Positions 864-41,075 of a stretch of DNA of 42,691 bases are shown here, one piece after another. Made by a program: the position numbers and the translations under genes. Where the stretch lies: the NCBI GenBank assembly GCA_018524725.1, contig JAEUWP010000228.1:1-42691 (forward strand), read 5' to 3'. Every line of letters begins with the position of its first letter. Position 1 is the first letter of the stretch. This stretch comes from Podaxis mareebaensis (lineage: Eukaryota; Basidiomycota; Agaricomycetes; Agaricales; Agaricaceae). The notes under the pieces were generated by a model, which worked only from the letters and a program-made list of their open reading frames with translations, made no database searches and had not been told where the DNA came from.

Positions 864-2640
864 TTATATCTGTCCAAGTTGAAGTCCTGAAAGTACTTCT
901 TTGTACACTATATTCATAGTCCTTCTGTTGTCCTCCAGCTCTGGTAACAACACTTTAATCCTCCTTCCTGATGTACACCTTGAGAGAGCCACATATAGTT
1001 GTCCATGAGAGAAGACAGATGTCTCCAAGTTAATCCCAACATGCTTCACTGACTGTCCCTGAGACTTGTTGATAGTCATTGCAAATGCAAGTTGGACTGG
1101 GAATTGCCTTTGCTTAAGAGGAATGGATAGGTTCTCTGATGATGGTTGCAAGGTAATTCTAGGAATCAGGGCTGTCTGGCCATGAAACTTGGGATCATTG
1201 CTGATGATCCTGCACCTCAGAACTCTCCTCTCTATCTTCTCCACAATCATCCTAGTCCCATTGCAGAGCCCCCTTGATGGATCAAAGTTCCTCAGAAGCA
1301 TTACTGGACAATGCTCCTTAAGAACTAACTTTGCTAGGGGCAAACCACCTGTATTGAGTGAGTTGAGGTACTCTGGTAGATAAGGTTGGTAGTTGTTCAT
1401 CTGGTCATTCCCTAGTTCAATAGAGTCAGCACTCATACTGTAAGAAGGTGGGATGGAACTTCAGGTTGGAACTTGCCAAGAATTGAAGCATTGAGGATAT
1501 CAACTTCATCATTTTTGGCAGAGAGGATGATCCTGTCCAGGAAGTATTGGTCAGGCATGGGGAATTGGATGTCAGGATAGATGGAGTTGATCAAGGAGTC
1601 CAGGTTAGGGCAACACATAGGAGCAGGAATCTGGAGAGTCTGATCATTGGCCAACTCATTTCCAGCTCCAATCTTGAGTAACCATCTAGCATGATCAATG
1701 CTATCTGGAGTCTGCTCTAACCTCATGTTATGGATCAAGTAGTGAACAGTGATATCATTCCAGAGAGGGGATTTGTGTAAGGAGGCTTGAACAACATCTT
1801 GTCTTGATCCATGAGGAACAACAGGAAGGGTTTGACAGAAGTCACCACCAAAAACAGTAGTGATATCACCAAAAGGCCCTTTCATTCTAAAACAAAATCA
1901 TAAGCTATCTATTTACTGGAGTAACAGGAGAATACTCACATTGAATAGGTCTTGGAGACATCTATCAACAGACTTGATAGCATTTCTGTGTTGTATAGGA
2001 GCTTCATCCCAGATGATAACCTTGGTTCACTGAAGGACTGGCCACATGTGTGAAGTGCACTTGATGCCAGCAACACAGGCTTCATCAGCAGGAATAGGAA
2101 TCTTGAACCTTGAATGGGCAGTTCTTCCTCCTATCAACAGTAGAGCTGCAATCCCAGAAGAGGCAACACAGAGAGCAATGTCACCTTGGGATCGAATAGC
2201 AGCAGCAATGGTGTTGAGAACAAAAGTCTTTCCACATCCACCTGCACTATGGATAAAGAGAGACTGGCCAAGGTTCTGGTTGATAGAGTCCATGACAGCA
2301 TTGTAGGCATTAGACTGTTCCTGGTTGAATCTCTGTTGGTCTTGATCAACCTGAGCTGTCAATTCAGCATGGTTATAGTCAAGCTCTGCTGCCAGCATAA
2401 AGTTGTCAACCTGATTCTGCCAGTCTTGCTGAGGGAGGGACATAGGAGGAAAGTCACTAAGAGTCTTTCCAGACTCCATGAGGATTTTGTTGAGGAGGTG
2501 AAGACCATAGTCATATACCTGCTCATCTGTGAACTCCATATTCCTATGGTGTACCATGGCTTGGAGCTGTGCTTTGCAGTCATCACAGATCTTGGGTCAG
2601 AATTGCTCCCAGAGGTTGAGAGGCTCAGCAGGATGACAGA
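864..2640 (-). pseudogene. Helitron PIF1-like DNA helicase domain (C-terminal part of RepHel)
   Basis: SF1B helicase region of the Helitron protein, which would unwind DNA during rolling-circle transposition. Motifs in order on the minus strand are: Walker A SAGGCGKT (about 2240), motif Ia VASSGIAALLLIGGRTAHSR (about 2140), motif II IIWDEAP (about 2010), motif III FGGDFCQTLPVV (about 1845), and the late motifs [12 protein letters not shown] and GQLYVALSR (about 1090-980). The reading ends with a stop at 864. A stop interrupts it just before motif II (near 2027), a probable 53-bp intron lies at 1887-1939, and a frame break occurs near 1433. All catalytic motifs are still readable, so decay is moderate. 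Assignment to the Helitron helicase rather than host PIF1 rests on the Rep domain upstream. Confidence 0.85.
1887..1939 (-). other. probable intron in Helitron helicase
   Basis: On the minus strand it starts GTGAGT and ends TTTTAG (53 bp), between motif II (ending DLFN) and the segment leading into GGDFCQ. Splicing at these sites leaves one extra base, so either a neighbouring splice site is used or an indel occurred. Length and signals fit basidiomycete introns. Confidence 0.6.
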
Positions 2641-4965
2641 AAAGGAGGATGACTGCAAATAATCATCTCAACACATTGCCTGTTTGCATATCTCCAGCCT
2701 CAGTTGGATACTGAATCCACTCTCTATCATCCTCCAAGATTCCTCTAGCCAAGCATGCCTCCTTGAATGTGTTATACAGCTGGCCCTGGTAGGTATACAA
2801 GTCTTGAAAAGAAGTGGCACCTGGAACAACTGTCAAGAGAAGCCTGAGGTAGAAATGCTCTCCCTAAACTGGAGAGGCAAAGTACATTTTCCCAATTGCT
2901 ATTCCCTTCTTCCTGTGTTTCCAGATCTTAGCCTTGTTGTTGTAAGTCCAAGTCTGGGGAAAGTCCTGATAGAGGATATGGCATGCATCTTCATTATCTC
3001 TATTGGCCTCAAACTAAGCAATGAGTGGTGTTCTTTTTATATTTCCCCTAACAAGGACCTCTGCTGCTGTCTGGTCTGGATTGAAATAAATGGTGTGCTG
3101 GTTGGGAAGGTGGACTGGAAGACAATAGACAGTGGGATAGGCACCATGTATGGAGAACTCAAATATATGGCTGCAAGCCTCTACAGGGGATACATAGCAA
3201 GCATCAAGATACTCTTTGATCTCATCCCTGTTTTGGTCTCCTACTGCTGCCAATGTGAGGGTTGTCTTGTCATGACCCTTGAAAATGTACTTGTAAATGT
3301 ATTTGATAGAGGAAATGGTGACAAAAATCTTGATATTGATATGGCAGCAGTACTTGGCACTAAGAAACTTGCAGTGGGGAATAACTCATCAGTTGTCATA
3401 GGTAAATCCAGCTTTCTCAAATGTCTGGTTGTTGTTTGGCCTAGTATACTTGGGATAACCATCCTCTCCAAATTGTGTATCCTCTCTAAACTCCTTAGGA
3501 AAGTGCTTGCTACAACTGCCATTGACCATACAGGGAGCATTGGGATAGCTAGGACCATATGGACCATGCAACATTGCAGAAGTAATGATCTCTGAGAGAA
3601 TAGGCTCAGTCTGAGGATTAGGAAGTTGTGCAGAGACTATGCAATCAACATGGTTGGCATCTCTGATCTTGTCAACTGACTTAAGGAACACCAAGAGATG
3701 CATATGAGGAAGGCCATGTTTCTGGTACTTGATTGTATGAACCATGGCTGAGATGTCTCTAAATAATCCACCCATGATGTTCTTGATAAGAGCATTCTTC
3801 TTATGCTCAAAGACCCTGACAACAATGTCTGGTCAATCTGTGGCTGTTTGTTCAGGAAGGAGGTTTTCAGTGATTTCATCCCATTTAGGATTTGCAGTCA
3901 TGGTGAGGAAGAGATCAGGGACTCAGTTGGCTCTACAAATGGCTATAGCATTCTGGAAGAGTTGGTTCATGAAATGTTCACTTCCAAGATGTGAAGAAGG
4001 TAGAATAACACATCAACCATGTTCCTGGAGTCTAATGTTGCCATCTTGGTCACCAATGAGAACATCTTGAAGGCCTTGATAAACCTCAGCTCTGAGCTCC
4101 TTCTGATTATTTCAGATCCCAGTAAGCTTGCTCTGTTCAGTGGAGGCCCAAGCATCAACAACATATTGTTGGAACAGCTTGCCACTATAGAACAATGGAG
4201 GATGGGGAGGAGGTTGGATGTGGAAACAATAGGCATAGTAGCATGTCTGAGAAACCCAGGGTGATTGCATCTTTCCATCAAGGCCAGGATATGCAGGAAT
4301 CTTGGGGTGCCAGCCATTTTCACCATAAGGAAAGAAAAGGACATAGTGGAGGCAGGAATAGGAAATACTGAGATGGCTAATCCTCTGAAGCCCACCACCT
4401 CATAGACATAGAATGATGTCTCAATGCTCAGACACCTCACCAGCCCCAGCAGTTGGAATGATAACAGACACCTCCTCAGCAGATGGAGCATTGTATCTTC
4501 TCTAGTCAGTGATAGGATTAACATATAGCTGAGCAGAGATATTATGTTGCTCATGCTCAGGCTTTCCCCTCATGATATCATAGGCCTGTTTATAAGTAGC
4601 AATATAGGGGTGAGTGCAATGGAGCATGTCTTGGAGCTCATTGAGAACAACATGGTCAAGATTGACATTGTTATTATTGTCATTTCACTGCCTATTGTTC
4701 TCTTACCTATAGTTGAGCTGGTCAGCAGAGTCAAAGAAGTAGATCTGAGTATAGACAGGACTCTGTCCAGGAGGAGGGATGAGAGCACCACAAAGATGGA
4801 AGAGTTTACCACTGATTTTGAAGCAGTAGGGACCTGATGCACAGGTAACAGACTGGTCAATCTTGGCTCAATTGATGTGAAAGCAAAAGTGGCATTGTAA
4901 CATTGAATATTGTTTTTGAAGCCAGTAGCCTGAGGCCTATCTCCAGCCATGAAGCCCTTGAGCAC
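2641..4965 (-). pseudogene. Helitron Rep (HUH endonuclease) and Helitron_like_N region
   Basis: Middle part of the Helitron RepHel protein. N-terminal to C-terminal: a Helitron_like_N segment at about 4900-3780, with GPYCFKISGKLFHLCGALIP and SPVYTQIYFFDS recognisable; then the Rep HUH motif in KHGLPHMHLL (about 3690); then the two-tyrosine motif in EIKEYLDACYVSPVEA (about 3215), which holds the strand-transfer tyrosines; then the linker GERFYLRLLL-like and PGATSFQDLYTYQGQLYNTF (about 2830). HUH residues and both tyrosines are kept. Several stops and frame changes separate the blocks, so no single open frame spans it. The nicking and joining role is known from the family. Confidence 0.8.
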
Positions 4966-5348
4966 AGGAGTGTCATCTAAGGGATGATAGGGAAGTAGCC
5001 TGATCTGGTTTTGTAGGCAACAAACACCAAATCAAATATTATTTACCCTTGATCTTGACAGCTTTTCACAGTCAAAATGAAGGGCTCTACAACACTGACA
5101 TGCAATGCTCATGTGACCTAGACTGTGCTTTTGAATAGTGCCATCAATATAGGGCTGACATCTATGTGGAATACATTGGAGTCAAGGAGGGGGAGGAGGA
5201 ATATTATTATTGGCTTCATTAGCATTGTCAGTATTAACAGGCCTATTGTGCTCTTCCTCATTAACTTCTGGGACTGGAGATGGTAGCTGGGGCTCAATAA
5301 TCTGCTGCTGGAGATTATTCAAAGCCTGTTGTGCTAAGTCATCATCTT

Positions 5349-6755: not shown

Positions 6756-6860
6756 AAATCACTAATGATTAATGTGAAATCACTAATGATTAATGTGAAA
6801 TCACTAATGATTAATGTGAAATCACTAACAATTGATGTGAAATCACTTATCTGATTGATA
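6756..6860. repeat. 21-bp tandem repeat, about 5 copies
   Basis: Units begin at 6756, 6777, 6798, 6819 and 6840. The first three are identical, the fourth and fifth diverge. The unit contains ATCACTAATGATTAATGTG. It lies in the 5' subterminal part of Helitron H1, outside the coding region. Confidence 0.9.
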
Positions 6861-7073: not shown

Positions 7074-7078
7074 TTGGC
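7074..7078. repeat. target-site duplication TTGGC of G1 (left)
   Basis: TTGGC directly precedes the LTR start at 7079. The matching copy is at 15352-15356. Five-bp duplications are usual for Ty3/gypsy integrases. Confidence 0.9.
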
Positions 7079-7789
7079 TGTTAAGAACTGACTCTGGATG
7101 GGGGCGGACCACGGGCAGACGCGCACGGACACGGGGTCGAGGCCTTGGCTTCAACTTATGTGTTGCGCCCCTCTGATACTGTGGTGGCCTCACTTGACCA
7201 ACTACGGACTCAAGCGGACGAGCGGACAGAGAACGGACGAAGACAGGACAAGCCCAGACCGAGGGGCGGACTTGTAGCGGACAAGCAGGAGAGAGGAGAA
7301 AGATCTAAGTTGATATTCTGACTGAGGACTACAAATGGTAGTGATCCTACTTATATACTAGCAGTCAGGATAAAGTCTGGAGAGTAGTAGTTAAGTGAGA
7401 AACAATAGTAACTACTCAAAGGAGAATACCAGAAACATGTGAACTGATAACCGCGGTGAAGATACCAGAATAAGGAGTCCATCCACAAAGTGTCTGGACA
7501 TCTGATAGGATGGGGGCGGAAGTGAAACATCAGATAACGGAGAAACCAAGATAAGCGAGAGATAATCAAGGGTAAAGGGTAAAGCCACAGATAAATGGAA
7601 AAACACGAGATAATCGGATAAGGAGATCAGATAAGGAAAATGACAGAAAGAACAAGGACAGATAAAAGTATTTGCAAGGGGAAGGGTTCAACGGAAAGGG
7701 AAGAAAGGTTAAACTGAATATGATCCACAGAATCCGGGTTGTAACCAAGGCTCCGAGAGTTTAATGGGCACAAAGTGAAGTCTGTAACA
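7079..7789 (-). repeat. 3' LTR of G1
   Basis: 711 bp, TGTTAAGAACTGACTC at the left to AGTCTGTAACA at the right on the plus strand. It lacks the 10-bp GGCCAAGGGC insertion found near 14670 in the other LTR. A TATA-like motif TATATAAG lies on the minus strand at 7357-7350. Confidence 0.93.
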
Positions 7790-7803
7790 GTATTCCCCCC
7801 TTA
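7790..7803 (-). promoter_or_regulatory. polypurine tract of G1
   Basis: Minus strand reads CTAAGGGGGGAATAC directly inside the 3' LTR. This is the purine run expected to prime plus-strand DNA synthesis. Confidence 0.7.
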
Positions 7804-7913
7804 GGGCCGAGCCTCCAAGGCCCAAGTCTGGACCAGACACCTGCCCTCAACTTTCTCTGCCAGATACAAAAGGGGCGCCTTCGGAAAACGAACTTCATTC
7901 CTCAACTCGCAAA

Positions 7914-9319
7914 ATGTCCTCTCAGAGCAACCAGACCCCCAGTACCAACCCTCCCTTCGACCCCGAGATGATGGCGGCTTTCTCCGCCTTCTACCAGCAC
8001 TGGCAGATGAGTAAGGACAAGCTGTCCGCACCCGAAGAGCAACCCACAGCAGAGGCGGGCCCGAGCAAGAAGAGAGGGTGGACGGAAGAGGCAGAGACAT
8101 CAGTGGGTAAGGCGGAGAAAAAGAAATGGAAGGTGAAGAGGGCTGAGGAAAAGAGGTGTAAGGAGGCAGAGGAAGTGGAGAGGAAACAGATAGAGGAGGA
8201 GGAGAGGAAGAAGCGGGAGGAGGAGAGGCAGGCAGCAGAGAGGGCAGAGGAGGAGTGGAGACAGAGGGAGGAAGAGGAAAGGAAGTGGAAGGAGCAGGAG
8301 GAGGCAGAGAGAGCCCGGAGGGAGCAAGAGGAGGAAGAATGGTGGAGAGCAGAGGAAGCGAGGAAGGCAGAGGCAGAGGTGGAGGCGAAGAAGAAGGCCA
8401 AGGGGAAGGGGAAGGCCGTCCGCCTGGAATCAGGTGATGAGTCGGATGTCCAGATTGTGGACCGTCTGGCTGGGTCGTGGGCATGACTCCCCTACAAGAT
8501 GGGGGGTGATAAAATGTGCCAGCGTTGCCACCAACTGGGAGTCAAGTGCGTTCCACATGAAAGTACATACCAACTCCGTTTACCATAAGACTACTGACCA
8601 TTTCTCTTAGAGGAGCAAATCCATTCTTGCACCAGTTGCTACCAGAAGAAATCCTGGTGCAAGCCATTCCTCTGAGAGGAGTCAGTGGACTGTGAAAATC
8701 CACAGGGGCTGCAACGCCCCATTCCCCACATCCTTAACCTGTTTACTCAAATGGGTAAGGATATCACAGAGTCAGAAGTCAGAATAATGGGGGCACTCCA
8801 CGGCATGGTAAGTGCCTATGTGGAGGATGGGGTTGGTGGTAAGCTGACCCAGGAATATGGTAGGTTCCCCGCTATGGCCTGTTAAGCAAGAAACAGGTCG
8901 CCTTATTTACGGATCTGACTGTAACTCCAATAGAGGCTGTCCATGCCCTAACTGCGGAGATCAATGCGCTCTGGAGGGTACAGGAGGAAACAAACGCTCT
9001 CATGAGGAGGGCATATCAAATCTCGGAGGAGGATGTACTGCGGGCACAGAGGGAAGCAGTGGACGAGTCGGACGGGTCAGAGGAGGAGGAACAGGAGGGA
9101 AAAGGTGCAGGAGTCCAGGACGTGGATATGGAAGACGGGGCCGAGATGGAGCTGGCAGAAACGGGTGGCGGGTTGGGTGGATCTGGTGGAAAAGAGGCGG
9201 AAGTGGAAGAAGAGATGGAGGAAAACAATGAGGATAGTGGATCAGAAGAAAGGGAAGAAGAGGAGGAAGATGGGGACAGGGAGGAGGATGGATCTGAAAA
9301 TGGAGAGGCAGAGGAATAG
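7914..9319 (+). pseudogene. spliced antisense gene inside G1: acidic/coiled-coil protein with Zn2Cys6-like cluster
   Basis: A plus-strand gene opposite to G1, between the chromodomain and the 3' LTR. Exon 1 is 7914-8807, the intron 8808-8863 (GTAAGT...GGTAG, branch-like GCTGAC), exon 2 8864-9319. Both exons are multiples of three and join in frame (GALHGM|VPRYGLLSKK), giving about 449 codons. Domains: N-terminal DPEMMAAFSAFYQHWQ; a long E/K/R coiled coil at residues ~50-170; a cysteine cluster MCQRCHQLGVKC...CTSCYQKKSWC at ~205-250, resembling fungal Zn2Cys6 fingers; a helical segment; and an acidic tail with DVDMEDG. Four in-frame stops (8484 TGA, 8586 TAA, 8595 TGA, 8673 TGA) are each explainable by C-to-T at CGA or CAA. 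ATG 7914 has a good context (GCAAAATGT). The function is unknown; DNA binding is inferred from the cluster only. Confidence 0.65.
8808..8863 (+). other. intron of the antisense gene
   Basis: 56 bp, GTAAGT at the donor and GGTAG at the acceptor, with a CTGAC branch-like motif about 15 nt before the acceptor. Removal joins two frames in phase 0. It lies on the strand opposite to G1, so it is not a G1 intron. Confidence 0.75.
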
Positions 9320-9475: not shown

Positions 9476-12400
9476 TCAGAGAGAGGACAGAGAACCAGGC
9501 TTGTCAGGATAACTGGCATGGAAGTCAGCTACTAACTCTTGCGCGTGTTCCAGTTCCTTAGCCATCAGCCAACTAAACTCTTCATCCGTACCTTCATAAC
9601 TGGCCCAAATGACTTTGTACAGGAGCGGACATGTCTGGCGGCGCCGGTCAATCTTGGAATCCACAATCCACTCGATCTCATATTCAGGCTCACTGTCAAT
9701 GATGACTGGAGGCAGAGGCAGAGGGACACGGTTAGGAATGGTGTTGGGAGTAGAAGGCTCGAGCATGGAGACATGGAAGACAGGGTGAACGGCACGCATA
9801 GAGTTGGGAAGTCAGAGGGTAAAGGAATGTGAGCCGGCTTGAGCAATGATCTTGTACGGACCTAAGAACTTCTCAGATAATTTCTTTGAAGGTCTAGTAG
9901 TCTGGAAGAACTGGGCTTTGACGAAGACTTTGTCACCAACCTTGAAGTCCAGAGCAGACAGACGACAGGCGTCTGCAGACACCTGGTAACACTCCTGGGC
10001 TCGGGCGATTTCAGTCTTGAGAGCAGAATGTAAGTCGTCGAGGTCAACTGTGAAGTCTCAGGCCCAGGTGGACGTGAGATCGCGTTCAGGATGGACGGAG
10101 ATGGCAGGGTGATAACCCTTGTTAGCAAAGAACGGAGAGACACCAGTGGTAGCATTGGGAGCATTGTTGTAGGCGAACTCTGCAATGGGAAGTAAGTCAG
10201 CCCAATTGTCCTGCTGATAATTGCAATATACTTGGAGGTATTGTTCGAGCGTCTGGTTCATCCACTCAGTCTGTCCATTGCCTTCTGGATGATATCCGGA
10301 TGTGAAGTGCAGCTTCATCTCCAGTGCCTTGCCCAAGGACTGGAAGAAGTGCGAGATGAATTCGGAGCTGTGATCGGATGTGACATGAGAGGGGACACCA
10401 TGCTTCGAGAATACATGGAGGACAAATAGGCGGGCGAGTTCAGTGGAGGTAATGGTGTCGTGAGTCAGAATGAAGATGCTTTGCTTGGTGAGACGGTCAA
10501 TGATTACAAGGATGGTATCAAAGCCGGAGGACTTGGGGAGCTTCTCAATGAAGTCCATAGAGATGGAATGCCAAGGGCAATCCAGGATAGGGAGTTGCTT
10601 GAGGTTTCTGTACGGCCGATGATGTTGTGACTTGCTCCGCATACAGGTTACGCAGCTTTTGCAGAAGTCCTTGACGAAGGAGTGGACATTTGGCCAGGTG
10701 TAGTCACGGCGGACCAACTCTAGAGTCTTGTTCTGACTGAAGTGTCTGGAAAGCATATGATCATGCTTGTACTGGAGGACTCGCAAGCAGAGGTCATTAG
10801 AATCAGGGATGTAAATGCGGCTGTCAAGGCAGAGGAAACCGTCCAAATCCATGGACCAGCAACCTTGGGGGTTAGAGATATGCTCAGTGGCAAGGGAATT
10901 GGAAGGAAGAGCGGAAAGGATGTCAGAATGGAGCTGCTCGTAGTCAAGGACCATGGCCACTTGGAGGGAAGGGGAAAAGAGGGAGGTGGCCCAGACAGAG
11001 GCTGCAAGTTGCTCTTGAGTGAAGACAGGTCTAAAGTTGTGAGGATTTACCGTGGCATAGCCATTATTCCCCCCTTTAGGATAGACGTCCCATTGTCTAG
11101 TCAAAGCGTCCGGTTTAGTCCCGAGGCATCCAGGACAGAAGCGGATGACGAGATTGAACTGTGACAAGTACTCTGACCAACGAGCCTGGTGACGAGTCAG
11201 AACTTTAGTAGTAGAGAAATACTCAAGGTTCTTGTGATCAGTGACCACATCAATGGGTAAGGCGGAGCCTTCAAGATAGTGTTGCCAGACACGAAAAGCC
11301 TCGAAGATGGCCAGAAGTTCCTTGTCATGAGTATCATAGTTAGATTCAGACGCATTGAAAGTGCAGGAATGGAAAGCAATGGGATGGATGTCACTGTCAG
11401 GAGCGATAATGGAAAGAATGGCAGCCAGGGCGTAGTCCGATGCATCTGTCTCAATGATAATCTGAGAGTCTGGAATCCAGTGAGTCAAGACCAGAGCCGT
11501 GGTGAAAGCCTTTTTGAGCACCTCAAATGCTTCGCGACACTCTGCCGTGAAGTTCCAGGGAGCACCCTTACGGGTGAGATGGGTCAGGGGAACTACAATG
11601 TCAGAATAACCATGAATAAAATGGCGGTAGAAGTTAGCGAAACCTAGGAAGGACTGAATGTCCTTGACTTTCTTTGGCTCGGGCCAATCTTGAATGATCT
11701 TGACTTTGTCTTTGGACATCTTGAGACCGTCCAGGGACAAGATGTAACCAAGGTATTTGACTGCTTCTGAATGGAACTCACACTTGTCCACTCACGTGTA
11801 CAAGCTGTGCTTGTGGAGCCGATGGAGGACTTCCCAGACATGTTGTTTATGTTGGGAGATGTCATCCGAGTAGATCAGAATATCATCAAGATAGATAGTG
11901 ACACATACGTCTAGTAGATCACCAAAAATGTCATTCATGAAACGCTGGAAGGCTGCCAGAGCGTTGGTGAGTCCGAATGGCATAACCATCCATTCAAAGG
12001 ACCCATAGCGGGTCTGGAAGGCGGTTTTCCACTTGTCTCCCTCAGCTATCCAGACAAGATGGTAGGCATGACAGAGATCTATCTTGGTGTAGATGCAAGC
12101 TTTGCGAGGAGAATCAAGGAGGTCGGAAATCAGGGGAAGGGGATAACAGTCTTTCTTGGTGATCTTGTTGAGTCCACAGAAGTTGACGCAAAGGCAGAGA
12201 GAACCATCTTTCTTGTGGACAAAGAGAACTGGAGCACCATGCGGAGAGGTTGATGGATGAATGAAGCTGATGGACAAGTGTTCATCGATAAATTCCCTTA
12301 ATGCTTCCAGCTCAACCTGAGATAGAGAGTAAATGGTCCTGATAGGAGGACTAGCACCCTCTTCCAGATTGATTTTAAGGTCATATGGATGATGCGGAGG

Positions 12401-13266
12401 CAACGTATCTGCACAGACCTTGCTGAAGACATCGGTGAATTCGTGATACTCTGAGGGAACGTTTGACAGATCGATGGGCTCGGAGGGCTGAGCGGACCCA
12501 GCGGAGACAGATGGAGAATGGATGCTGAAAGTAAAGGGAACTGAACCAGGAAGACGAGATGCACACAGGAAAGCTGCAGCACCAATCAGGCTGATATGAG
12601 GACGGAGCAGAGGTGAATCGGACAGAGCGGAGGAATCAGATGTAGAGGACAGAGGGACTTGATCAGATGTAGAGGACAGAGGGACTTGATCAGAAGTGGA
12701 GGAAGGCAGATCTGGATGGACCGGAAATGCAGAAGAAAGCACGGCGCGGAGAGTCGGAGCAGGGGTTGGAAAGACTTGTTGCTGTGGCCAGAAAGAGATA
12801 CTGTTTGAGACCCAGTCAATCAACAGATTGTAGCGGGTGAGCCAGTTGTGACCAAGAACCACAGAGCAAGACGAGTCCAACCGAGTGACGTAGAAGTCCA
12901 AAGTCATTGATTCACCAGTAGGAAATGTAACAGGGATTTTCACTAGTTCAGTTATATATGAGTTTGAAGAGCCGTCAAAAAGTTGAAGTTCTACAGGAGC
13001 AACATGGAACATAGGAATCGAGCAATCATGAACAAGGGAAGAATCAACGAAGCAATGTGTGGAACCACTATCCACCAAGGCAGTCACAGTACCATTGGAC
13101 AAAGGCAGATCGGAGGTGGACGAAGGAGCGAAAGATGGAGAAGAAAGGGGAACGTGAAGAGCATGAGGGTTGGAAAGAGCGGACGTGTTGAGTCGGAAAC
13201 TCTCTGTAGCACAGACGAGTTCAACATGGTCCCCAGTCTGTGCAGAGTCCTGAGGACCGCCCTCTA
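9476..13266 (-). pseudogene. pol: G1 Pol polyprotein (protease, RT, RNase H, integrase, chromodomain), three TGA stops
   Basis: One minus-strand frame of about 1,260 codons from the gag end, in the -1 frame relative to Gag. Order: aspartic protease VTALVDSGSTHCFVD (~13075); RT with KKDGSLCLCVNF and catalytic YLDDILIYSDD (~11890); RNase H starting IIETDASDYALAAIL (~11455); integrase zinc region H-H-C-C (YKHDHMLSRHF...CKSCVTC); DDE core with MDFIEKLP, VTSDHSSEF and GNGQTEWMNQTLEQYL; and a C-terminal chromodomain EYEIEWIVDSKIDRR...LYKVIW (~9680-9560), which targets integration to chromatin in chromoviruses. Stops are TGA at 11792-11794, 10058-10060 and 9812-9814. At the last two the family context expects Arg (TL*LPNSMRAVHPVFHVS, TWA*DFTVDLDDL), consistent with CGA to TGA. 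The SDHSSEF Asp is kept although SDRGSEF is more usual. Confidence 0.9.
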
Positions 13267-14589
13267 TTTTTTCGAACCTGATGGGGGATTCAAAGGAGAG
13301 GGGCTCTTCGCTGGAACCTCAGCTTGGGCTTGAGCCTGCCGACCTTTGGCCTTCTGATTAGAGGCAGATGGACCCAGTGGAGGACCGGATCCAGACACCT
13401 TGCATGGGCAGTTGTTTACCCAATGGTTAGCATCACCACAGAACATACAGAGGTTGTTGTCAAAGCAATGTTGGCGTTCCCGAGGGGTGAGCTTGCCATT
13501 CAGGCCAAGTTTATTGCCCAGAGATGACTTCGGAGTGTTCCCGGACTGAGAAGAATTGGGAGGGGATTTGGTGGAGGACGAGTTAGGCTTCTGATTATTG
13601 TTGTTGTTGGACAAATTGCTGGGTTTCTTCTGATTAGGGTTGTTCCTTGGGGGCTGCGCAGAGCGGTCACTATGATGCTTATGCTCGTGCTGCCACTCCC
13701 AGTGACATTGGTCAATAAGACTAGCGACCCTCTTCATTTTGTCCAAGGAGTTGGGCTTACCCTCCGCCCGAGTGGCAATCAAGTCCTGAATATGATCCAG
13801 AAGACCCCTATAATAACGATGGCAAAGGACCGAGTCTGGCCACCCGACCAAACTAGCCAGGCAGTTGAACTCGAGGTCATATTTGAGGATGGGTTGGTTA
13901 CTAGCCATCCGGAGAGAGTCCAGCTCTTCAGTGGCTTCTCTGGTGGGGTCTGCAAGTCCAAAACGGGTTTCTATTTCTCTGACAAAGACTTCCCAGTTAT
14001 TGAGAAGCTTGTGGTTGGACCAATCAAGGTCTTTGGACCTGAGAATGGTTTGGAACCAGTCGAGAGCAGTGCCAGACAGATACGTGATAGCAAAGCAGAT
14101 TTTGGAAGAATCTTCTGCGAACTGATGTGCATTTGAAGTGAAATAGAGGCGGCACTGGAAGACCCATTGGCGGATTTTGAGAGGGTCCGAACTGTCGAAA
14201 GTGTCAGGTTCTCGGACCTTCACACAAGAGGGATTTGCTGGGCCAACGGAGTTGCTATGCTCCAAGGAACAGAGGGTATGGGAGAGGCGGCCAAGAGCAT
14301 TGGCTAACATTTCCTGGGGGTCTTGATTTTCATCATCGTCCTCACCAGGGTCATTGCCACCACCACCACCCTCATCTCCGGGGTCCAGAGGGCCACCGGA
14401 ATTTTCTTGTGAATACCCAGCAGAGGTTTGGGTTTGAGTTCTGGACTTGGCAGTAACCATAGAAGACATGGTGGAAGAAAATTGATATGGAGCGGGAGTT
14501 GAAGAGAATTCACGATTTGTGCAGGGGAGAACAGGTTCTGGAATGGTGATTCCTTGAGCTCGTGCAGCACTATGTGTTGTAGATGGCAT
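13264..14589 (-). CDS. gag: G1 Gag (capsid-nucleocapsid)
   Basis: Intact 441-residue frame. The N-terminal third is disordered, with an acidic GDEGGGGGNDPGEDDDENQ run. The retrotransposon Gag domain covers about residues 130-290 (RQWVFQCRLYFTSNAHQF, LSGTALDWFQTIL). A basic Asn/Pro/Ser-rich linker follows, then one zinc knuckle CMFCGDANHWVNNC (C-x2-C-x4-H-x4-C) near residue 395. It would form the virus-like particle shell and bind element RNA. It ends at TAG (13266-13264) within CGAAAAAATAG. pol continues in the -1 frame from there. Confidence 0.9.
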   Translation of the reverse strand: MPSTTHSAARAQGITIPEPVLPCTNREFSSTPAPYQFSSTMSSMVTAKSRTQTQTSAGYSQENSGGPLDPGDEGGGGGNDPGEDDDENQDPQEMLANALGRLSHTLCSLEHSNSVGPANPSCVKVREPDTFDSSDPLKIRQWVFQCRLYFTSNAHQFAEDSSKICFAITYLSGTALDWFQTILRSKDLDWSNHKLLNNWEVFVREIETRFGLADPTREATEELDSLRMASNQPILKYDLEFNCLASLVGWPDSVLCHRYYRGLLDHIQDLIATRAEGKPNSLDKMKRVASLIDQCHWEWQHEHKHHSDRSAQPPRNNPNQKKPSNLSNNNNNQKPNSSSTKSPPNSSQSGNTPKSSLGNKLGLNGKLTPRERQHCFDNNLCMFCGDANHWVNNCPCKVSGSGPPLGPSASNQKAKGRQAQAQAEVPAKSPSPLNPPSGSKK

Positions 14590-14630
14590 AAAAATTTGGA
14601 ACGATACCAGAGGTCTGAGTCAGAATATAC

Positions 14631-15351
14631 TGTTAAGAACTGACTCCGGACAGGGGTGGACCACGGGCGGCCAAGGGCAGACATGCGCGGACACGGGGTC
14701 GAGGCCTTGGCTTCAACTTATGTGTTGCACCCCTCTGATACCGTGGTGGCCTCACTTGACCAACTACGGACTCAAGTGGATGAGTGGACAGAGAACGGAC
14801 GAAGACAGGACAAGCCCAGACCGAGGGGCGGACTTGTAGCGGACAAGCAGGAGAGAGGAGAAAGATCTAAGTTGATATTCTGACTGAGGACTACAAACGG
14901 TAGTGATCCTACTTATATACTAGCAGTCAGGATAAAGTCCGGAGAGTAGTAGTTAAGCAAGAAACAATAGTAACTACTCAAAGGAGAATACCAGAAACAT
15001 GTGAACTGATAACCACAGTGAAGATACCAGAATAAGGAGTCCGTCCGCAAAGCATCCGGACATCCAATAGGATGGGGGCGGAAGTGAAACATCAGATAAC
15101 GGAGAAACCAAGATAAGCGAGAGATAATCAAGGGTAAAGGGTAAAGCCACGGATAAATGGAAAAACACAAGATAATCGGATAAGGAGATCAGATAAGGAA
15201 AATGACGGAAAGAACAAGGACAGATAAAAGTATTTGCAAGGGGAAGGGTCTGACAGAAAGGGAAGAAAGGTTAAACTGAATACAATCCACAGAATCCAGG
15301 TTGTAACCAAGGCTCCGAGAGTTTAATGGGCACAAAGTGAAGTCTGTAACA
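14631..15351 (-). repeat. 5' LTR of G1
   Basis: 721 bp, TGTTA...TAACA on the plus strand, nearly identical to 7079-7789 apart from a 10-bp insertion near 14670 and scattered transitions. As the element reads minus, this is the promoter-bearing LTR. Confidence 0.93.
14912..14919 (-). promoter_or_regulatory. TATA-like element in the G1 LTR
   Basis: TATATAAG on the minus strand, within the 5' LTR and about 290 bp from its inner end. The same motif is kept in the other LTR. Confidence 0.5.
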
Positions 15352-15356
15352 TTGGC
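15352..15356. repeat. target-site duplication TTGGC of G1 (right)
   Basis: Directly follows LTR end TAACA. Pairs with 7074-7078. Confidence 0.9.
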
Positions 15357-15424
15357 ACTCTTTACTCAATCTAATTCAGAGTTCAAAGCACAATCTAATT
15401 CAACAGCATAATGTATTTTAGTTA

Positions 15425-17530: not shown

Positions 17531-18599
17531 AGTTGTTCTATCCATGTATAATTTGATCTAGTGTACATGTATGCTAGCTGAAAGCCCCAACAGCCATCTC
17601 TCACTCACTCCAGTAGTCCCGAGTTCTTCTGTCTGTGGTCCTAGCATCTTATTTTTTATTTTTTTCACAATTTAGACAGTCATTTAACCAACATGTATAC
17701 TTGCTGAATATCTACTCTAAAAGCCCCAACAGTCATTCCTCATTCATTCCAGTAGTCCTATCCATAGTCCCAGTAATCCTTAATTTTTATATTATTTTTT
17801 CATGATTTATACAGTCACCTAGAGTACATATATGCTGGCTAAATATGCCCAAGCAGCTGATGCATCAAATAATTCCCAGGCCATCACCCCATCAGTTATG
17901 TCAAATAGCCCAGTTTTATTTCTTCTAGTCATGCCAAGTATCCCAGTTTTATTTCCTGCAGTCATTCTAAGCTGTTCAGTTTCATCTCTTCTAGTCATCC
18001 CAAGTCACTTAGTTTCATCTCCTGTAGTCATCTCAAATAGCCATCTCAAATAGCCTAGTTTCATCTACTCTAATCATACTATATAGTCCAGTTTCACCTC
18101 CTCTAGTCATCCCAAGTCACCTAGTTTCATCTACTATACTCATTCTATCTAGCCCAGTTCCATCTCCCCTAGTCATCCCAAGTAGTCCAGTTTCACCTCC
18201 TATAGCCATCTTAAGCCATCCAGTCTCATCTCCTTCAATCATCCCAAACATCCCAGTTTCATCTCTTTCAGTCATTCCAACATGGTACTGGTATCTTATA
18301 TTCTCATAATTGTTTTCACAATTTATACAGTAATCTAATCTACATGTATACTGGCTGAACATCCACCTTAAAAGCTCCAACAGTTATTCCTCACTCACTC
18401 CAGTAGCCCTATCTACAGTCCCAGTAATCCTTAAATTTTATTATTTTTTCGTAATTTATACAGTCATTTAGTGTACATGTATATGCTAGCTGAATATTCT
18501 CCTTCAGCCACTCCAATAGTCCCAAACCATTCTATTCCATAGTCTCAGCAGTCTGTGAAATTTTATTATTATTTTTTCGTGATTTATACAGTCATCTGG
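17531..18599. repeat. ~130-bp tandem repeat with embedded 33-bp-type block
   Basis: A marker motif near TGTACATGTATGCTAGCTGA recurs at about 17561, 17690, 17822, 18340, 18471 and 18598 (the last split by G2 and completed at 34739). That gives a spacing of 128-132 bp, with CCCCAACAG and TTTATACAGTCAT shared between units. The gap 17880-18285 is filled by the 33-bp-type repeat. No coding potential seen. Confidence 0.75.
18595..18599. repeat. target-site duplication TCTGG of G2 (left)
   Basis: TCTGG precedes TGTTACAC. The right copy is 34734-34738. Confidence 0.9.
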
Positions 18600-19256
18600 T
18601 GTTACACTCCTCTTGTCTCTGTCATCATCCACATTGTCCTTCTCCTTTTCTGGCCTATCTCTCATTCTCCTCAACATCTAGCCTCTCTGCCATCTTGTGA
18701 CTTGCCACTTGCCTCATTGCAACTCATGCCTCAATCATTGGTTTCACCTCAGATCTTCTGAAGCCATACTATGTTTAGTACTTGGGCTTGGTGATACCTT
18801 GTATAATAATAGTCCACCTTCTGTAGATCTCATCTTACCTCAGGCTTGGTCTAGTATAATTAGAACACCAAAGTAACTACAAGTGTCTCAATATGGACAT
18901 GTAGAATAGCAATCATTCTTGTATTTAGATAGCTTGTAAAGTAAGTAGAGCTTAGCTTTACAATCATTTGTACATAGCATGAGAATAGCAGGTCTGTCTA
19001 CTGCTCTATCTTCTTGCCACATGAGAGCTCTACCTGCCTCAACAGGATAACTGGCATAACAGCTAAACCTATAGAGTAGCCTGTGACCTTACAAGTTGTA
19101 CCTCTCCCTAGGCAGTCCCTGCAAGATTTCCAACCAGCCTCTAGTTCTCTCAGGAGAATGGATGGGCATTCTGCTTCAGGAACTTAATAGTGTTGGGTTG
19201 TCTTAGGACAGTATCTCTCCACACTGAGACAACATCCATACTGTCTCTACATAACA
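18600..19256 (+). repeat. 5' LTR of G2
   Basis: 657 bp, TGTTACACTCCTCTTGTC to CTCTACATAACA. It closely matches 34077-34733. A TATA-like TATAATAA occurs at 18802. No standard tRNA primer site beginning TGG directly follows. Confidence 0.93.
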
Positions 19257-34063: not shown

Positions 34064-34076
34064 ACAAAGGGGATGA
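34064..34076 (+). promoter_or_regulatory. polypurine tract of G2
   Basis: ACAAAGGGGATGA directly upstream of the 3' LTR start TGTTACAC. Confidence 0.7.
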
Positions 34077-34733
34077 TGTTACACTCCTCTTGTCTCTGTC
34101 ATCATCCATGTTGTCCTTCTCCTTTTCTGGCCTATCTCTTGTTCTCCTCAACATCTAGCCTCTGTGCCATCTTGTGACTTGCCACTTGCCTTGTTGTGAC
34201 CCACACCTCAATTATCAGTTTCACCTTGGATCTTCCAAAGCCATGCTATGTTTAGTACTTGGGCTTGGTGATACCTTGTATAATAATAGTCCACCTTCTG
34301 TAGATCTCATCTTACCTCAGGCTCAGTCTAGTATAATTAGAACACTGAAGTAACTACAAGTGTCTCAATATGGACACGTAGAATAGCAATCACTCTCGTA
34401 TTTAGATAGCTTGTAAAGTAAGTAGAACTTAGCTTTACAATCATTTGTACATAGCATGAGAATAGCAGGTCTGTCTACTGCTCTATCTTCTTGCTGCATG
34501 AGAGCTCTACCTGCCTCAACAGGATAACTGGTGTAACAGCTAAACCTATGGAGTAGCCTGTGACCTTACAAGTTGTATCTCTCCCTAGGCAGTCCCTGTG
34601 AGATTTCCAACCAGCCTCTAGTTCTCTCAGGAGAACGGACAGGTATTCTGCTTCAGGAACTTAATAGTGTTGGGTTGTCTTAGGACAGTATCTCTCCACA
34701 CTGAGACGACATCCATACCATCTCTACATAACA
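34077..34733 (+). repeat. 3' LTR of G2
   Basis: 657 bp, same length as the 5' LTR. Differences seen are mainly C/T and G/A changes. Confidence 0.93.
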
Positions 34734-35082: not shown

Positions 35083-35177
35083 CAAGCCTGATTACCTGTG
35101 CCATTGGCACTCTTTACTCAATCTAATTCAGAGTTCAAAGCACAATCTAATTCAGAGTTCAGAGCACAATCTAATTC
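35083..35177 (-). mobile_element. 3' end of a third Helitron-like unit H3 (interrupted by LINE L2)
   Basis: On the plus strand: CAAGCCTGATTACC, the hairpin GTGCC-ATT-GGCAC at 35098-35110, then ACTCAATCTAATTCAGA and a short tandem of AGAGCACAATCTAATTC. It directly abuts the TCTATAA end of H2. In element orientation it ends CTTG rather than CTRR. The rest lies beyond LINE L2, outside the window. Confidence 0.5.
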
Positions 35178-35192
35178 TTTTTTTTTTTTTTT
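35178..35192 (-). repeat. poly-A tail of LINE L2 (poly-T on plus strand)
   Basis: 15 T between CAATCTAATTC and AAATCAACATTTATTGC. Confidence 0.9.
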
Positions 35193-35463
35193 AAATCAAC
35201 ATTTATTGCAATAGACTAGCTACTACAAATGGGTGCACAATAGCAGTCCCAAGAACTGAAACCTACAGACAAGAGAAAGAAACAGAGAGAGAGAAAAGAA
35301 AAGAGGGTATGGGAGTGAGGGAGCTAATGATGAGACAACCAACACAAGATATGGTGTACAACAAATCAAACAGAAAGAGAGAAGAGAGACGAAAGAAAAG
35401 AGGTAGAGGAAAGATGGAGCTAGCGAGAGGCAAGCGTACATAAGAAAGAAAGAAGAGATCCTT

Positions 35464-38400
35464 TTAGTGAATGTCAGGAGCGCCGTGTAGAGCCAGCCTC
35501 TCTCATTGAGTAAGCCATCGAGTGTTGTAGTCCTCAAAAGTTATTGGTCCTTGTATCTGGTCAGCAAATGAGAATGCTGCTGGGTTTTCATGAAGGAACT
35601 CAATGAGCCAGAAGATATTCATGTGAATACCATATGGCCAATGATAGAGGGGACAGTGGTGGATGATGTGGTCCCAGGTTTCAAGTTCTTCGCTGCATGG
35701 GCAGGAAGTGATGTAGCACCCTGGGAAGAAGCACTGTCTGAAAGTGCCAATAGGTGTGTGGTTGGTCACGCATCAAGTAAAGCACATGCATAAGTTGGGG
35801 TCAGCACCTAGGCCCGATGAAAGCCAAGTGCTGCCATTGGTGTATTTGGGCTCCAGTGGTTGATCCACAGGGTTGGTAAGGAGAAGCCAATTGTGGCCTC
35901 AATATTTGGGAACATTCATTTTCTGCCTCCAAAGAGCAAGGCATTTGGTGGTGTAATGGTTTCAAACATAGCCTAGAGAGGTGCAGATGGGGAACTGTGG
36001 ATTATTTGGAATGTGCAGCGACTTGGCAAGGTTATGTGCTTGGAAGTGTACCAACCATTTTTCAGAAGAGGGAACTGACTAGAAATGGATGTTATTGAGG
36101 GGGGAGGAGGATAGCCACTCTTGGAGAAGAGGTATGACCACTAGAGCATCCTTGTGAGCACTGTGGGGGCCATAGTTAAAAAGAAGTTTTGCAGAAGAAA
36201 TAGAATCCATAAAGAAAGATATGGAGGAACAACTTTGAGAAATAGCAAGAGAGATGGATGAAAAGAGACTGAGATGGATAGCATATGATTTGGAATCAGA
36301 AGAAATTACTTCTCCACAGGGGCAAACAGAAGAAGAGAGAATATCAGAAGCAGAAGAGTTAAAGACAAGAAAAGCAGAGGTAGCAGAGAGCTGCAGATTG
36401 AGGGGGACTGAACCATCAGAAGAAATGACTAATGATACAGGAGAGGAAAAAGAATGATCTCTAGCTACATTGAGAGATTGTATATATCAAGCCTTTACAT
36501 TGTTATCGACAGGGGTAGGACATTGGTGAAAGTGAATTTGTGAATCGAAGTGGTCAATAAGATGCTGGCTGGGTTTGGCACTTGGATGTAAGTGGTTAAA
36601 TTGATCTGAGACTAGCTGGGCATCAGAAACAAAGTCTAATGCTGTGGATTGATTTTTAGAAGTGCATGTATCAAGAGGGTCAATGTCATGTGTGAGGATT
36701 TTGAGGGAGTGGGATGGGGGGAGGGTTTGAAAGTGAAGGGAGCATCGTTTAGCAAGTTTGAAGAGGTGAAGTTGGATGGGGATGAGACTGGTGATAGCTT
36801 CAACTCCACCTGTGGGTGTTGTGTGAAATGCACCGGTGATCCATAGGGCTGCAGACTGTTGTATTTGTTGGAGTTGTTTGATGAGGCCTTTGTATCAGCC
36901 ATTTTGATTAAACCATAGATGGAAACCATATATGGCAATAGGAACTACACAAGACCTGTAGAGGAGGCATTTGTGTAGAGGGGAGAGGCCTTGAATAGAG
37001 TTGCCAAGGAGGCACATGCATTTTACTGTGGAAAGCACCTTGGTGGAATAGTATCAGACATGTTCCTTAAAGGATAGCACCCAGTTGAAGTAGAAGCCCA
37101 AGTATTAAAGATGATGCTTGGGCTTGAAGATGAGTTTGCCATTGGTTGGATGCTCAATGACAATGTGAGGGTCTGGTTCAGCCCAAGGTCGATTGGAAAA
37201 GTGAAAAGCTTCGGTCTTGTCATGTTCAAGAGCGAGGCCCATTGAGGTTAGTAATTGTTCGCAACTGAGGTATACAGAGGCAAGTAGTTTACAGTTGGTG
37301 TGGAATGATTCTGACTGTACTATGATGAGTCCATTGTCAACAAAGGAAAGTAATTTATACCAAGCATCATTAGAGAACTTGTGGATGAATGGAGAGAGGT
37401 AGAGGGCAGTTAGGATAGGGGAGAGAGCTGAGCCTTGACCAACACCTACAGAAGCTGGAAAGGGAGGAGAGGTTACATTGTTCCAAGAGTATGTAGTGAA
37501 ATGATTAATTAGATAGTCTGAGAAAAAGGAAACTACAGAAGGATGGAAACCATGTCTCTTAAGAATTTCAATTAAAAGAGAGTGATTAATAGAAGGAAAG
37601 AATTGAGTGACATCAAATGTGAGGATGCTTGTTTTCAAGTTCTTTTTCCATCCAGATCGGACCATGTGAGTGATGAAGACTCCTGCATCTTCTGTAGAGC
37701 AATGAATGATACCCCCAAATTGAAGGGGGTGGACGAGATCAAATTGTGTTGATTCAAATTGGAGATGATTAGATATCATCTTCTCAATTAGTTTGCCTAG
37801 GGTGTTTAAGGACAATGGGTCGGAACATCTTAGGCACCAAATAATGGGGTTTATTCAGTTTAGGGATGATAACTGAAGTGGAAGTTTTAAAATATTCCAG
37901 CCACGTGTGGAATTGGATGCATGCAGAGGTGAATGTTGTGAAGTTCGATTTAATGTCATCATCTGACATAAGGAATTTGATGTGGGCCCATGTGAGGTGA
38001 TCTGGGCCTGGAGCGGAGGAATTGGTGCATGGGAGTAGGGCATCTGTTAGTTCTCGGGTTGAGAAAGGAGGCCATGCTCACTCTTTTTGATCTGGAGTGA
38101 ATTTGGCTGTATTGAGATCCACAGGTCTATTAGATGCTGCATTGTACATTTCATTGAGTGCTCTCCATAGGTTCTCCAGCTCGTCACATGGTTGTCCTTT
38201 GTGAAGGATGGATTGGGATGGGGGAAGATTATGCTTCTTAACCCATGACATTAGGTCCCAAGGACGTTATTTCTCCCTCCAGATCTCTAAGATTTTTTGA
38301 TCAAAGAAAGCTCACTTTGCATTTCTAGTAGTGTGTCTGAAGTTGTTCCAGTTGCACTTGGTCCAATGAGCATTAAAAGCATATAGGGCATTGGAACATT

Positions 38401-38845: not shown

Positions 38846-38861
38846 GAGCTAATGATGCTCA

Positions 38862-40758: not shown

Positions 40759-41048
40759 AAAGGGTTTCTTTTCTTGTTTATATTTCTCACTCTCATATAT
40801 GCTTGCCTTTCGCTAGCTCCATCTTCCATCTCCCATTTCACTTTCATCTCTCTTCTCTCTCTATGTTTGATTAGTTGTACTCTCTATCTTGTGTTGGTTG
40901 CCTCTTGCTAGCTCCCTCACTCCTTCCCCACCTCTCTTTCCTTTTCTTTTCTCTCTGTTTCCTTTTTGTGTCTGTAGGTTTCAGCTCTTGGGACTGCTAT
41001 CGTGCACCCGTTTGTAGTAGCCAGTCTATTGCAATAAATGTTGATTTT
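40759..41048 (+). other. 3' UTR of LINE L3
   Basis: Pyrimidine-rich non-coding stretch with GCTAGCTCC motifs and AATAAA. It resembles the L1 3' UTR (32662-32935) and the L2 3' UTR (35193-35463). Confidence 0.7.
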
Positions 41049-41064
41049 AAAAAAAAAAAAAAAA

Positions 41065-41075
41065 ATGATGTCACA
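41065..41075. repeat. target-site duplication of LINE L3 (right)
   Basis: ATGATGTCACA following the poly-A. Pairs with 38835-38845. Confidence 0.7.

What the first reader, a model, noticed from the sequence alone, without database searches (positions are those of the whole stretch)
7914..9319. Spliced antisense gene with a Zn2Cys6-like cluster carried by a gypsy retrotransposon
Between the chromodomain and the 3' LTR of G1, on the opposite strand, is a ~450-codon gene. It has a clear 56-bp GTAAGT...TAG intron whose removal joins two frames exactly. The protein has a conserved-looking N-terminus, a long charged coiled coil, paired cysteine clusters (C-x2-C-x6-C ... C-x2-C-x5-C) and an acidic tail. 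Antisense accessory ORFs are known in a few plant LTR elements; I know of no established function for one like this. It could be an element-encoded regulator, or a captured host gene. Four stops, all explainable as C-to-T, mean this copy is dead, but family members may be intact.
Basis: partly seen in the sequence, partly recalled or inferred. Interest (0 to 1): 0.8.

Follow-up and report, generated by a model that had tools for sequence, protein, structure and literature searches.

The report
Spliced antisense gene in fungal retrotransposons
A jumping gene in a fungus carries, on its opposite strand, its own spliced gene for a zinc-cluster protein that looks like a DNA-binding regulator and has been kept by natural selection.

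Summary
The antisense gene is real but has three exons: 7914-8562, 8611-8807, 8864-9319. Spliced, 18 of 18 readable copies keep C-x2-C-x6-C-x10-C-x2-C-x6-C, Zn2Cys6-type spacing. It lies between pol and 3' LTR of a chromodomain gypsy element, with a conserved TATA-like box before the ATG. Codons are under purifying selection (pN/pS 0.14-0.31 in four tested parts, 1.0-1.5 in the other forward frames; the first 51 nt show none). One of 17 near-complete copies is open throughout. It adjoins 15 of 15 family members that reach the pol 3' end. Two sister families carry diverged spliced antisense genes with a similar cluster. Intron 2 is the gene's most conserved stretch and evolves like coding sequence when retained, suggesting two isoforms. 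Antisense accessory ORFs are known in plants and in Botrytis; I found no report of a spliced zinc-cluster form. Best guess: a self-encoded nuclear regulator of the element's own LTR. RNA, protein and function are untested.

The parts
7078..7789 (-). 3' LTR of element G1 (BLAST bounds; TG...CA from 7079; target-site duplication TTGGC at 7074-7078 and 15352-15356)
   Evidence: self-BLAST, 93.8% over 722 columns with 14630-15351; global alignment 35 substitutions in 712 sites, 34 of CpG type
14630..15351 (-). 5' LTR of element G1 (BLAST bounds)
9476..14619 (-). gag (Retrotrans_gag, DUF4939), protease, RT, RNase H, integrase and chromodomain of G1, split over several frames in this copy
   Evidence: ORFs, Pfam
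7791..7804 (-). polypurine tract of the element, adjoining the 3' LTR
   Evidence: read from the sequence; near-identical in the 20 copies printed
7863..7875 (+). TATA-like box GATACAAAAGGGG about 49 nt upstream of the antisense ATG, probable own promoter
   Evidence: GATACAAA in 18 of 20 copies and TACAA in 20 of 20; promoter function inferred
7914..8562 (+). exon 1: N-terminus, basic stretch, long charged helix, first half of Cys cluster
   Evidence: pN/pS 0.31 in the correct frame at its 3' end, 0.79 (no preference) in its first 51 nt
   Evidence: GT (GC once) and AG in 20 of 20 copies; interior non-CpG divergence 0.435; length 46-50 nt in 17 copies
8517..8660 (+). Zn2Cys6-type cluster C-x2-C-x6-C-x10-C-x2-C-x6-C when spliced
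   Evidence: all six Cys kept in 18 of 18 readable copies; Pfam Zn_clus below cut-off for G1
8611..8807 (+). exon 2: second half of Cys cluster and conserved post-cluster region
   Evidence: pN/pS 0.14 (cluster part) and 0.26 (rest), 12 copies
8808..8863 (+). intron 2 (56 nt): most conserved stretch of the gene, open in exon 2's frame when retained
   Evidence: GTAAGT...TAG in 18 of 18 copies that reach it; mean identity 93.1% against 56.5% for intron 1, 16 copies; retained-frame pN/pS 0.25, no stop; post hoc codon-position test P about 0.001
8864..9319 (+). exon 3: conserved core (about 60 residues) and acidic tail, stop at 9317-9319
   Evidence: pN/pS 0.29 for the core; dN/dS 0.21 for the tail

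Best explanation
The feature is a genuine accessory gene of a fungal chromodomain gypsy (chromovirus) lineage, encoded on the strand opposite to gag-pol between pol and the 3' LTR. SHOWN from sequence: three exons with canonical introns, purifying selection on most of the protein, a six-cysteine Zn2Cys6-type cluster created by splicing, presence beside every family member that reaches the pol 3' end, and diverged counterparts in two sister families. INFERRED: the transcript starts at the element's own antisense promoter (TATA-like box between polypurine tract and ATG). The introns survive retrotransposition because the packaged genomic RNA is the other strand and is never spliced there. The protein goes to the nucleus (basic stretches), binds DNA through the zinc cluster and uses the acidic tail to contact the transcription machinery. 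Its most likely target is the element's own LTR, so that it sets the balance between expression and quiescence, as antisense HBZ does for HTLV-1. Retention of intron 2 would give a shorter isoform with the zinc cluster but without exon 3 and the acidic tail, a possible built-in antagonist.
For: Gene structure in 20 copies and 17 spliced readings; pN/pS 0.14-0.31 in the right frame and 1.0-1.5 in the other forward frames of four parts, similar to 0.32 for the pol end in 15 copies; whole-CDS dN/dS 0.19 over 12 copies; six Cys kept in 18 of 18; neighbour of 15 of 15 G1 places that reach the pol 3' end and of 13 of 13 pol ends of the sister type; sister families with the same pattern (x7 between the halves) and an intron; the 40-aa G2 cluster passes the Zn_clus cut-off (25.2 bits against 21); TATA-like box kept; intron 2 evolves like coding sequence.
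Against: No RNA or protein evidence. The G1 cluster (9.1-17.6 bits) and G3 cluster (no match) do not reach the Pfam cut-off, and nor does the whole G2 ORF (15.5); the one stretch shown per family fits the 'wrong' half of the Zn_clus profile. No other DNA-binding or TF domain appeared at E <= 10; no solved structure matched the G2 cluster. Nothing here shows LTR binding. G1 and G3 proteins align only over 27 columns of the cluster (8 identical, E 0.005), so homology between families is uncertain. The first 51 nt gave no frame preference (0.79 in frame, others 0.72-1.60). G2 exon 2 is weakly constrained (0.47 against 0.90 and 0.56), and G2 against G3 gives 0.53-0.60 (exon 1) and 0.70-0.80 (exon 2) with pS near saturation.
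Confidence: 0.5

Rival explanations
1. Anti-silencing factor: the protein binds element DNA and counters host DNA methylation or heterochromatin, like VANC proteins of Arabidopsis VANDAL transposons, rather than tuning transcription as such.
For: The element is under strong CpG-type decay: 34 of 35 LTR differences of the window copy. The accessory gene diverges faster than pol: 70-90% DNA identity to the window copy against 87-93% for the pol end; corrected dS 1.13 and dN 0.21 in 12 copies against raw pS 0.22 and pN 0.07 in 15, different measures and copy sets. An arms race would give that. VANC precedent: PMC10398659 and PMC5735166 (abstract starts in the listing only).
Against: No homology to VANC was tested; the faster divergence could also come from recombination between sub-lineages.
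Confidence: 0.2
2. Nuclear import, chromatin tethering or integration-site factor: the protein escorts the preintegration complex or targets it, working with the chromodomain of integrase.
For: Basic stretches and a long charged helix; PMC7264820 discusses preintegration-complex entry for plant antisense proteins; Retand antisense proteins are predicted to bind DNA (PMC11963269, abstract passage).
Against: The pol-encoded chromodomain already offers targeting; an acidic tail and a zinc cluster fit transcription better (inference).
Confidence: 0.15
3. The antisense transcript acts as RNA (double-stranded RNA or interference with gag-pol), and the protein is incidental.
For: The two genes converge, with about 155 nt between their stop codons (9319 and 9476); antisense RNA roles are discussed for other retroelements (PMC7264820).
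Against: Frame-specific purifying selection, six invariant Cys and precise intron/exon structure need translation.
Confidence: 0.07
4. Recently captured host Zn2Cys6 gene still acting on host genes.
For: Zn2Cys6 proteins are a typically fungal class (recalled); this genome has at least 18 Zn_clus matches over the cut-off.
Against: No G1-like match outside the copies at E <= 1; the gene is in each family member that reaches the pol 3' end and beside the sister-type pol ends, so any capture is old. Of 24 strong G2/G3 matches, 13 adjoin a pol end and one more was seen beside pol (L052); the other 10 were not examined for free-standing genes.
Confidence: 0.05
5. Intron 2 is not a regulated intron: its conservation reflects a splicing or RNA-structure element, or the reading frames are joined by ribosomal frameshifting instead of splicing.
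For: An 8-bp hairpin over the branch-point region appears in the minimum-energy fold of 17 of 17 copies folded; alifold z -3.0 against plain column shuffles. The reverse-strand frames in register also show low pN/pS there (0.29, 0.36).
Against: Single-sequence folding is no better than dinucleotide shuffles (z -0.34); 9 of 15 variable sites are at third codon positions and only 1 at a second position (test chosen after seeing the counts); donor and acceptor are invariant in 18 of 18.
Confidence: 0.3

Closest known systems
Antisense accessory ORFs between pol and 3' LTR (aORF-3R) of plant gypsy elements: maize Grande gene23, rice RIRE2, Silene Retand (PMC7264820, text parts 1 and 2 of 3 read; PMC11963269, passages)
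   Same: position, antisense orientation, presence in most copies, own upstream promoter in Grande, suspected nuclear or DNA-binding protein
   Different: here a chromodomain element of a fungus; three exons; a Zn2Cys6-type cluster; no match to the Transposase_28 domain (PF04195) of Retand; the words 'intron' and 'zinc' do not occur in the main text of the Retand paper
Boty / BcGypsy1 antisense gene brtn of Botrytis cinerea (Zhao et al. 2011, seen only as cited in PMC7264820 and PMC8365987)
   Same: fungal gypsy element with an additional antisense gene between pol and 3' LTR
HTLV-1 HBZ and APH-2/3/4 antisense proteins (PMC10186651, passages)
   Same: antisense gene at the 3' end of an LTR element, spliced, spliced and unspliced isoforms of HBZ, nuclear regulator of the element's own LTR
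   Different: HBZ is a bZIP protein driven from inside the 3' LTR; here a zinc cluster and a likely promoter outside the LTR; no common descent implied
Fungal Zn(2)-Cys(6) transcription factors (PF00172)
   Same: Cys number and spacing; the G2 cluster exceeds the cut-off when cut out (25.2 bits)
   Different: G1 at most 17.6 bits, G3 no match, whole G2 ORF 15.5; the stretch shown fits the opposite half of the profile in G1 and G2; no other TF domain found

Membership tests
aORF-3R class of LTR retrotransposons | ORF antisense to gag-pol between pol and 3' LTR | tested here: met
aORF-3R class of LTR retrotransposons | present in most copies of the family | tested here: met
   15 of 15 G1 places covering at least query 5-777 of 782 from the pol 3' end have the gene adjoining; two short 3'-end pieces (C70, C200) also do; four G1-type places that lack the pol 3' end (C181, C258, C70:30514, C160:12921) could not be judged
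aORF-3R class of LTR retrotransposons | conserved as a protein, like gag-pol | tested here: met
   pN/pS 0.14-0.31 in four parts, 0.79 in the first 51 nt, against 0.32 for the pol end
aORF-3R class of LTR retrotransposons | antisense transcript from its own promoter | not testable with these tools
   only a conserved TATA-like box seen; no RNA data
Retand-type aORF proteins | Transposase_28 (PF04195) domain (named in PMC11963269) | tested here: not met
   no such Pfam match at E <= 10
Boty brtn | sequence homology to brtn | not testable with these tools
   brtn sequence not held
Zn(2)-Cys(6) TF family (PF00172) | C-x2-C-x6-C-x(5-12)-C-x2-C-x(6-8)-C spacing (recalled) | tested here: met
   x10 in G1, x7 in G2 and G3
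Zn(2)-Cys(6) TF family (PF00172) | Pfam gathering score | tested here: inconclusive
   G1 9.1-17.6 bits, below 21; G2 cut-out cluster 25.2 bits, whole ORF 15.5; G3 none
Zn(2)-Cys(6) TF family (PF00172) | order of the two half-clusters | tested here: inconclusive
   best stretch: G1 first half on profile 20-35, G2 second half on profile 1-14 (the other stretch is not shown); an artificially swapped G2 fits in one stretch, 29.4 bits; swapped G1 gains almost nothing (17.6 to 17.9); G3 no match either way
Zn(2)-Cys(6) TF family (PF00172) | zinc and DNA binding | not testable with these tools
   needs protein
HBZ-type retroviral antisense factors | bZIP domain | tested here: not met
   no bZIP match in Pfam at E <= 10

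The most novel reading that the evidence does not exclude
A lineage of fungal chromoviruses carries a self-regulatory circuit on its antisense strand: one spliced gene gives two zinc-cluster isoforms, chosen by splicing or retaining a 56-nt dual-coding intron (with or without the acidic effector tail), an activator/repressor switch over the element's own LTR, and the gene is handed down with introns intact because it is antisense to the packaged RNA.
Probability: 0.2. Interest if true: 0.85.

Novelty: new variant of a known kind. Interest (0 to 1): 0.62.

Why it matters
Antisense accessory ORFs of LTR retrotransposons have no established function (PMC7264820). Here the protein has a recognisable zinc-cluster layout, clean splice signals, purifying selection, and counterparts in three families of one genome, so the regulatory hypothesis becomes directly testable. 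It also illustrates how an LTR element can keep an intron-bearing gene: by encoding it on the strand that is not packaged. If intron 2 is a regulated dual-coding intron, it would be a retrotransposon counterpart of the spliced and unspliced HBZ isoforms of HTLV-1.

Tried and rejected
Rejected: chance ORF (frame-specific selection). Recent host capture. RNA-structure explanation for intron 2 kept only as weak. Programmed frameshift instead of intron 2: the coding phase changes at the acceptor AG and the exon 3 frame has a stop just before it, and no slippery heptamer was seen by eye; disfavoured, not excluded.

Led nowhere: protein database searches with the spliced G1 protein, residues 184-345 (47 candidates, none at E <= 10), and with the G2 exon 1 ORF (7675 candidates, none at E <= 1); that database may simply lack fungal relatives, so spread across species is untested. 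Two scans of viral contigs gave pattern matches (68 and 3 stretches) but no confirmed relative. Solved structures: none at E <= 10 for the G2 cluster. Loci L029-L048 were fetched and not analysed further. The first G2 selection test missed the exon 1 start and one copy's acceptor; one search replaces it. The host species was not identified; 'basidiomycete-like' is inference from CpG-type decay, short introns and element types. Literature searches for a precedent of a spliced or zinc-cluster antisense gene in a fungal element; none seen in the listings, in an open-access library. [quoted passage not shown] PMC3411680: term search only, one irrelevant hit.

Full report
WHERE IT IS. The window is contig 115 of a 37-Mb, 429-contig genome. 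Element G1 lies on the minus strand: LTRs at 7078-7789 and 14630-15351, a 5-bp target-site duplication TTGGC on both sides (read), gag, protease, RT, RNase H, integrase and chromodomain between 14619 and 9476, split over several frames. The finding lies between the end of pol and the 3' LTR, on the opposite strand.

THE GENE. DNA search of the own genome gave 28 matching pieces, of which the 20 best-scoring were aligned. The gene has three exons: 7914-8562, 8611-8807 and 8864-9319. Intron 2 (8808-8863) is GTAAGT...TAG in 18 of the 18 copies that reach it and 56 nt in all 17 measured. Of 17 near-complete copies (3 of the 20 are truncated), one (L019) is open from ATG to stop, 429 aa; the other 16 carry 1 to 18 stops, and five of them (L002, L007, L009, L010, L015) also frame-breaking changes, which inflate their stop counts. 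So an intact antisense frame exists.

DECAY. The two LTRs of the window copy differ at 35 of 712 sites, 34 of them CpG-type transitions. Over the 12 copies without frame breaks, 44 stops are 31 TGA, 12 TAG and 1 TAA; at 10 of the 31 TGA sites another copy has CGA. TGA fits CpG decay; the TAG and TAA stops do not need a CpG. The decay thus looks mainly, not wholly, like methyl-CpG deamination.

SELECTION. In those 12 copies pN/pS in the proper frame is 0.31 (exon 1 end), 0.14 (exon 2, cluster part), 0.26 (rest of exon 2) and 0.29 (exon 3 core), against 1.03-1.45 in the other two forward frames. Reverse frames that share third positions are also low (0.29-0.47). The first 51 nt show no preference (0.79 in frame, 0.72-1.60 in the others). 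The charged helix and acidic tail were tested only by codon alignment (dN/dS 0.16 and 0.21); whole-gene dN/dS is 0.19 with high dS, and the cluster segment's dS was not computable. The pol end gives 0.32 in 15 copies. All six cysteines stay in 18 of 18 readable copies, dead ones included.

THE PROTEIN. Spliced, the cysteines read C-x2-C-x6-C-x10-C-x2-C-x6-C, the Zn2Cys6 spacing (recalled). Pfam Zn_clus scores for G1 are below cut-off (9.1, 11.5, 16.0 and 17.6 bits against 21 as the stretch given shrinks). The 40-aa cluster of sister family G2 passes (25.2 bits) although its whole ORF does not (15.5); G3 gave no match. The best stretch shown is the first half on profile 20-35 in G1 and the second half on profile 1-14 in G2, which hints at a half-swapped cluster; swapping the halves artificially gave one continuous match for G2 (29.4 bits), hardly a change for G1 (17.9) and none for G3. 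N-terminal to the cluster is a strongly charged helix with few hydrophobics and basic stretches; C-terminal is an acidic tail. No other credible domain appeared. The layout resembles a transcription regulator; binding is not shown.

INTRON 2 IS ODD. It is the most conserved 56 nt of the gene: mean pairwise identity 93.1%, against 56.5% for intron 1 and 68-76% for whole exon segments (16 copies); with CpG changes removed its divergence is 0.045 against 0.11-0.24 in exon segments (17 copies). Of 15 variable columns inside it, 9 are at third positions of exon 2's frame, 5 at first and 1 at second (chance about 0.001 in a test chosen afterwards). The retained frame has no stop in the 18 copies and pN/pS 0.25; other forward frames 0.62 and 6.62, reverse 0.29, 0.36 and 8.74. 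Read through, it ends about 7 codons after the intron in 12 copies and about 18 in 5, of the 17 that reach that point. So it looks both spliced and translated: a possible isoform switch that removes exon 3. Folding gave no strong alternative (single-sequence z -0.34; alifold z -3.0 against column shuffles, with one 8-bp stem in 17 of 17 folds).

THE FAMILY. Each G1 place that covers the pol end from its 3' terminus (15 of 15) adjoins an antisense-gene match, and so do two shorter 3'-end pieces; four G1-type places without the pol 3' end could not be judged. Searching with 162 residues of the G1 protein gave 51 matches at E <= 1, all on gene copies. Thirteen further places with 68-74% pol DNA identity are a sister group; three were fetched (L049-L051) and each carries an antisense gene with C-x2-C-x6-C-x7-C-x2-C-x6-C, a 49-nt GTAAGT...TAG intron and a second exon in another frame; L049 and L051 have one stop in exon 1, L050 none. 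In those three copies exon 1 pN/pS is 0.28 in frame and 1.40 and 0.78 out of frame; exon 2 is weaker (0.47 against 0.90 and 0.56). The G2 protein search found 26 matches at E <= 1, 24 of them at E <= 1e-29, including one near each of those 13 pol ends. A third family (L052) has an open antisense gene with the same x7 spacing and a 46-nt intron; G2 and G3 share 43-48% identity in exon 1, with pN/pS 0.53-0.60 (0.70-0.80 in exon 2) at near-saturated pS. G1 and G3 pol ends are 76% identical in protein, yet their antisense proteins align only over 27 columns at the Cys cluster. The accessory gene therefore diverges much faster than pol, or has been exchanged.

HOW IT PROBABLY WORKS. A TATA-like box stands about 49 nt before the ATG, outside the LTR and next to the polypurine tract (GATACAAA in 18 of 20 copies), so an own promoter is likely, as reported for Grande gene23 (PMC7264820). 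Because element genomic RNA is the other strand, the introns cannot be removed from it and are carried along (deduction). The best-supported role is a nuclear regulator acting on the element's LTR, analogous to HBZ (PMC10186651, passages). Rivals: anti-silencing factor, tethering factor, RNA-only role; see the fields.

WHAT IS KNOWN. [quoted passage not shown] PMC8365987 passages). Searches listed no report that I recognised of a spliced, zinc-cluster antisense gene in a fungal element; the library is open-access only. Verdict: new variant of a known kind, real and selected, function inferred.

Noticed in passing
L002-L020 against the window; 7914-9319 versus 9476-10257: The antisense gene is far more diverged from the window copy (70-90% DNA identity) than the adjoining pol end (87-93%), and copies L006 and L011 have the N-terminus of one sub-lineage on the body of another: signs of recombination or module exchange.
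   Followed up: partly
window 7078-7789 / 14630-15351: 34 of 35 LTR differences are CpG-type transitions; by other changes (1 in 712) the insertion looks young, so plain LTR-divergence dating would overestimate its age.
   Followed up: partly
window 864-5031 (minus strand): Remains of what looks like a Helitron Rep/Pif1-type helicase gene, broken into several frames (recognised by eye, not searched).
   Followed up: no
window 6756-6839: 21-bp tandem repeat (AAATCACTAATGATTAATGTG), about four copies, left of the 3' LTR.
   Followed up: no
window 18597-19256 and 34074-34733: LTR-like repeat pair (93.3%) around a second gypsy element on the plus strand, apparently interrupted by a non-LTR retrotransposon (about 26.1-33.0 kb); no antisense Cys-cluster ORF was noticed in it by eye.
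   Followed up: no
window 35174-37373 and 38849-41066: Two inverted, 81% identical pieces of the same non-LTR retrotransposon family.
   Followed up: no
window 15344-15402 and 35096-35154: 59-bp stretch 97% identical at the G1 right flank and at 35.1 kb, with a similar stretch by eye near 785-835; possibly a common target or the end of another element.
   Followed up: no
G000 C131, C425, C200:63772, C359, C101, C272, C415:62719: Seven of the 24 strong G2/G3 antisense exon 1 matches have no stop in the matched stretch, so the sister families may hold more open copies than G1.
   Followed up: partly
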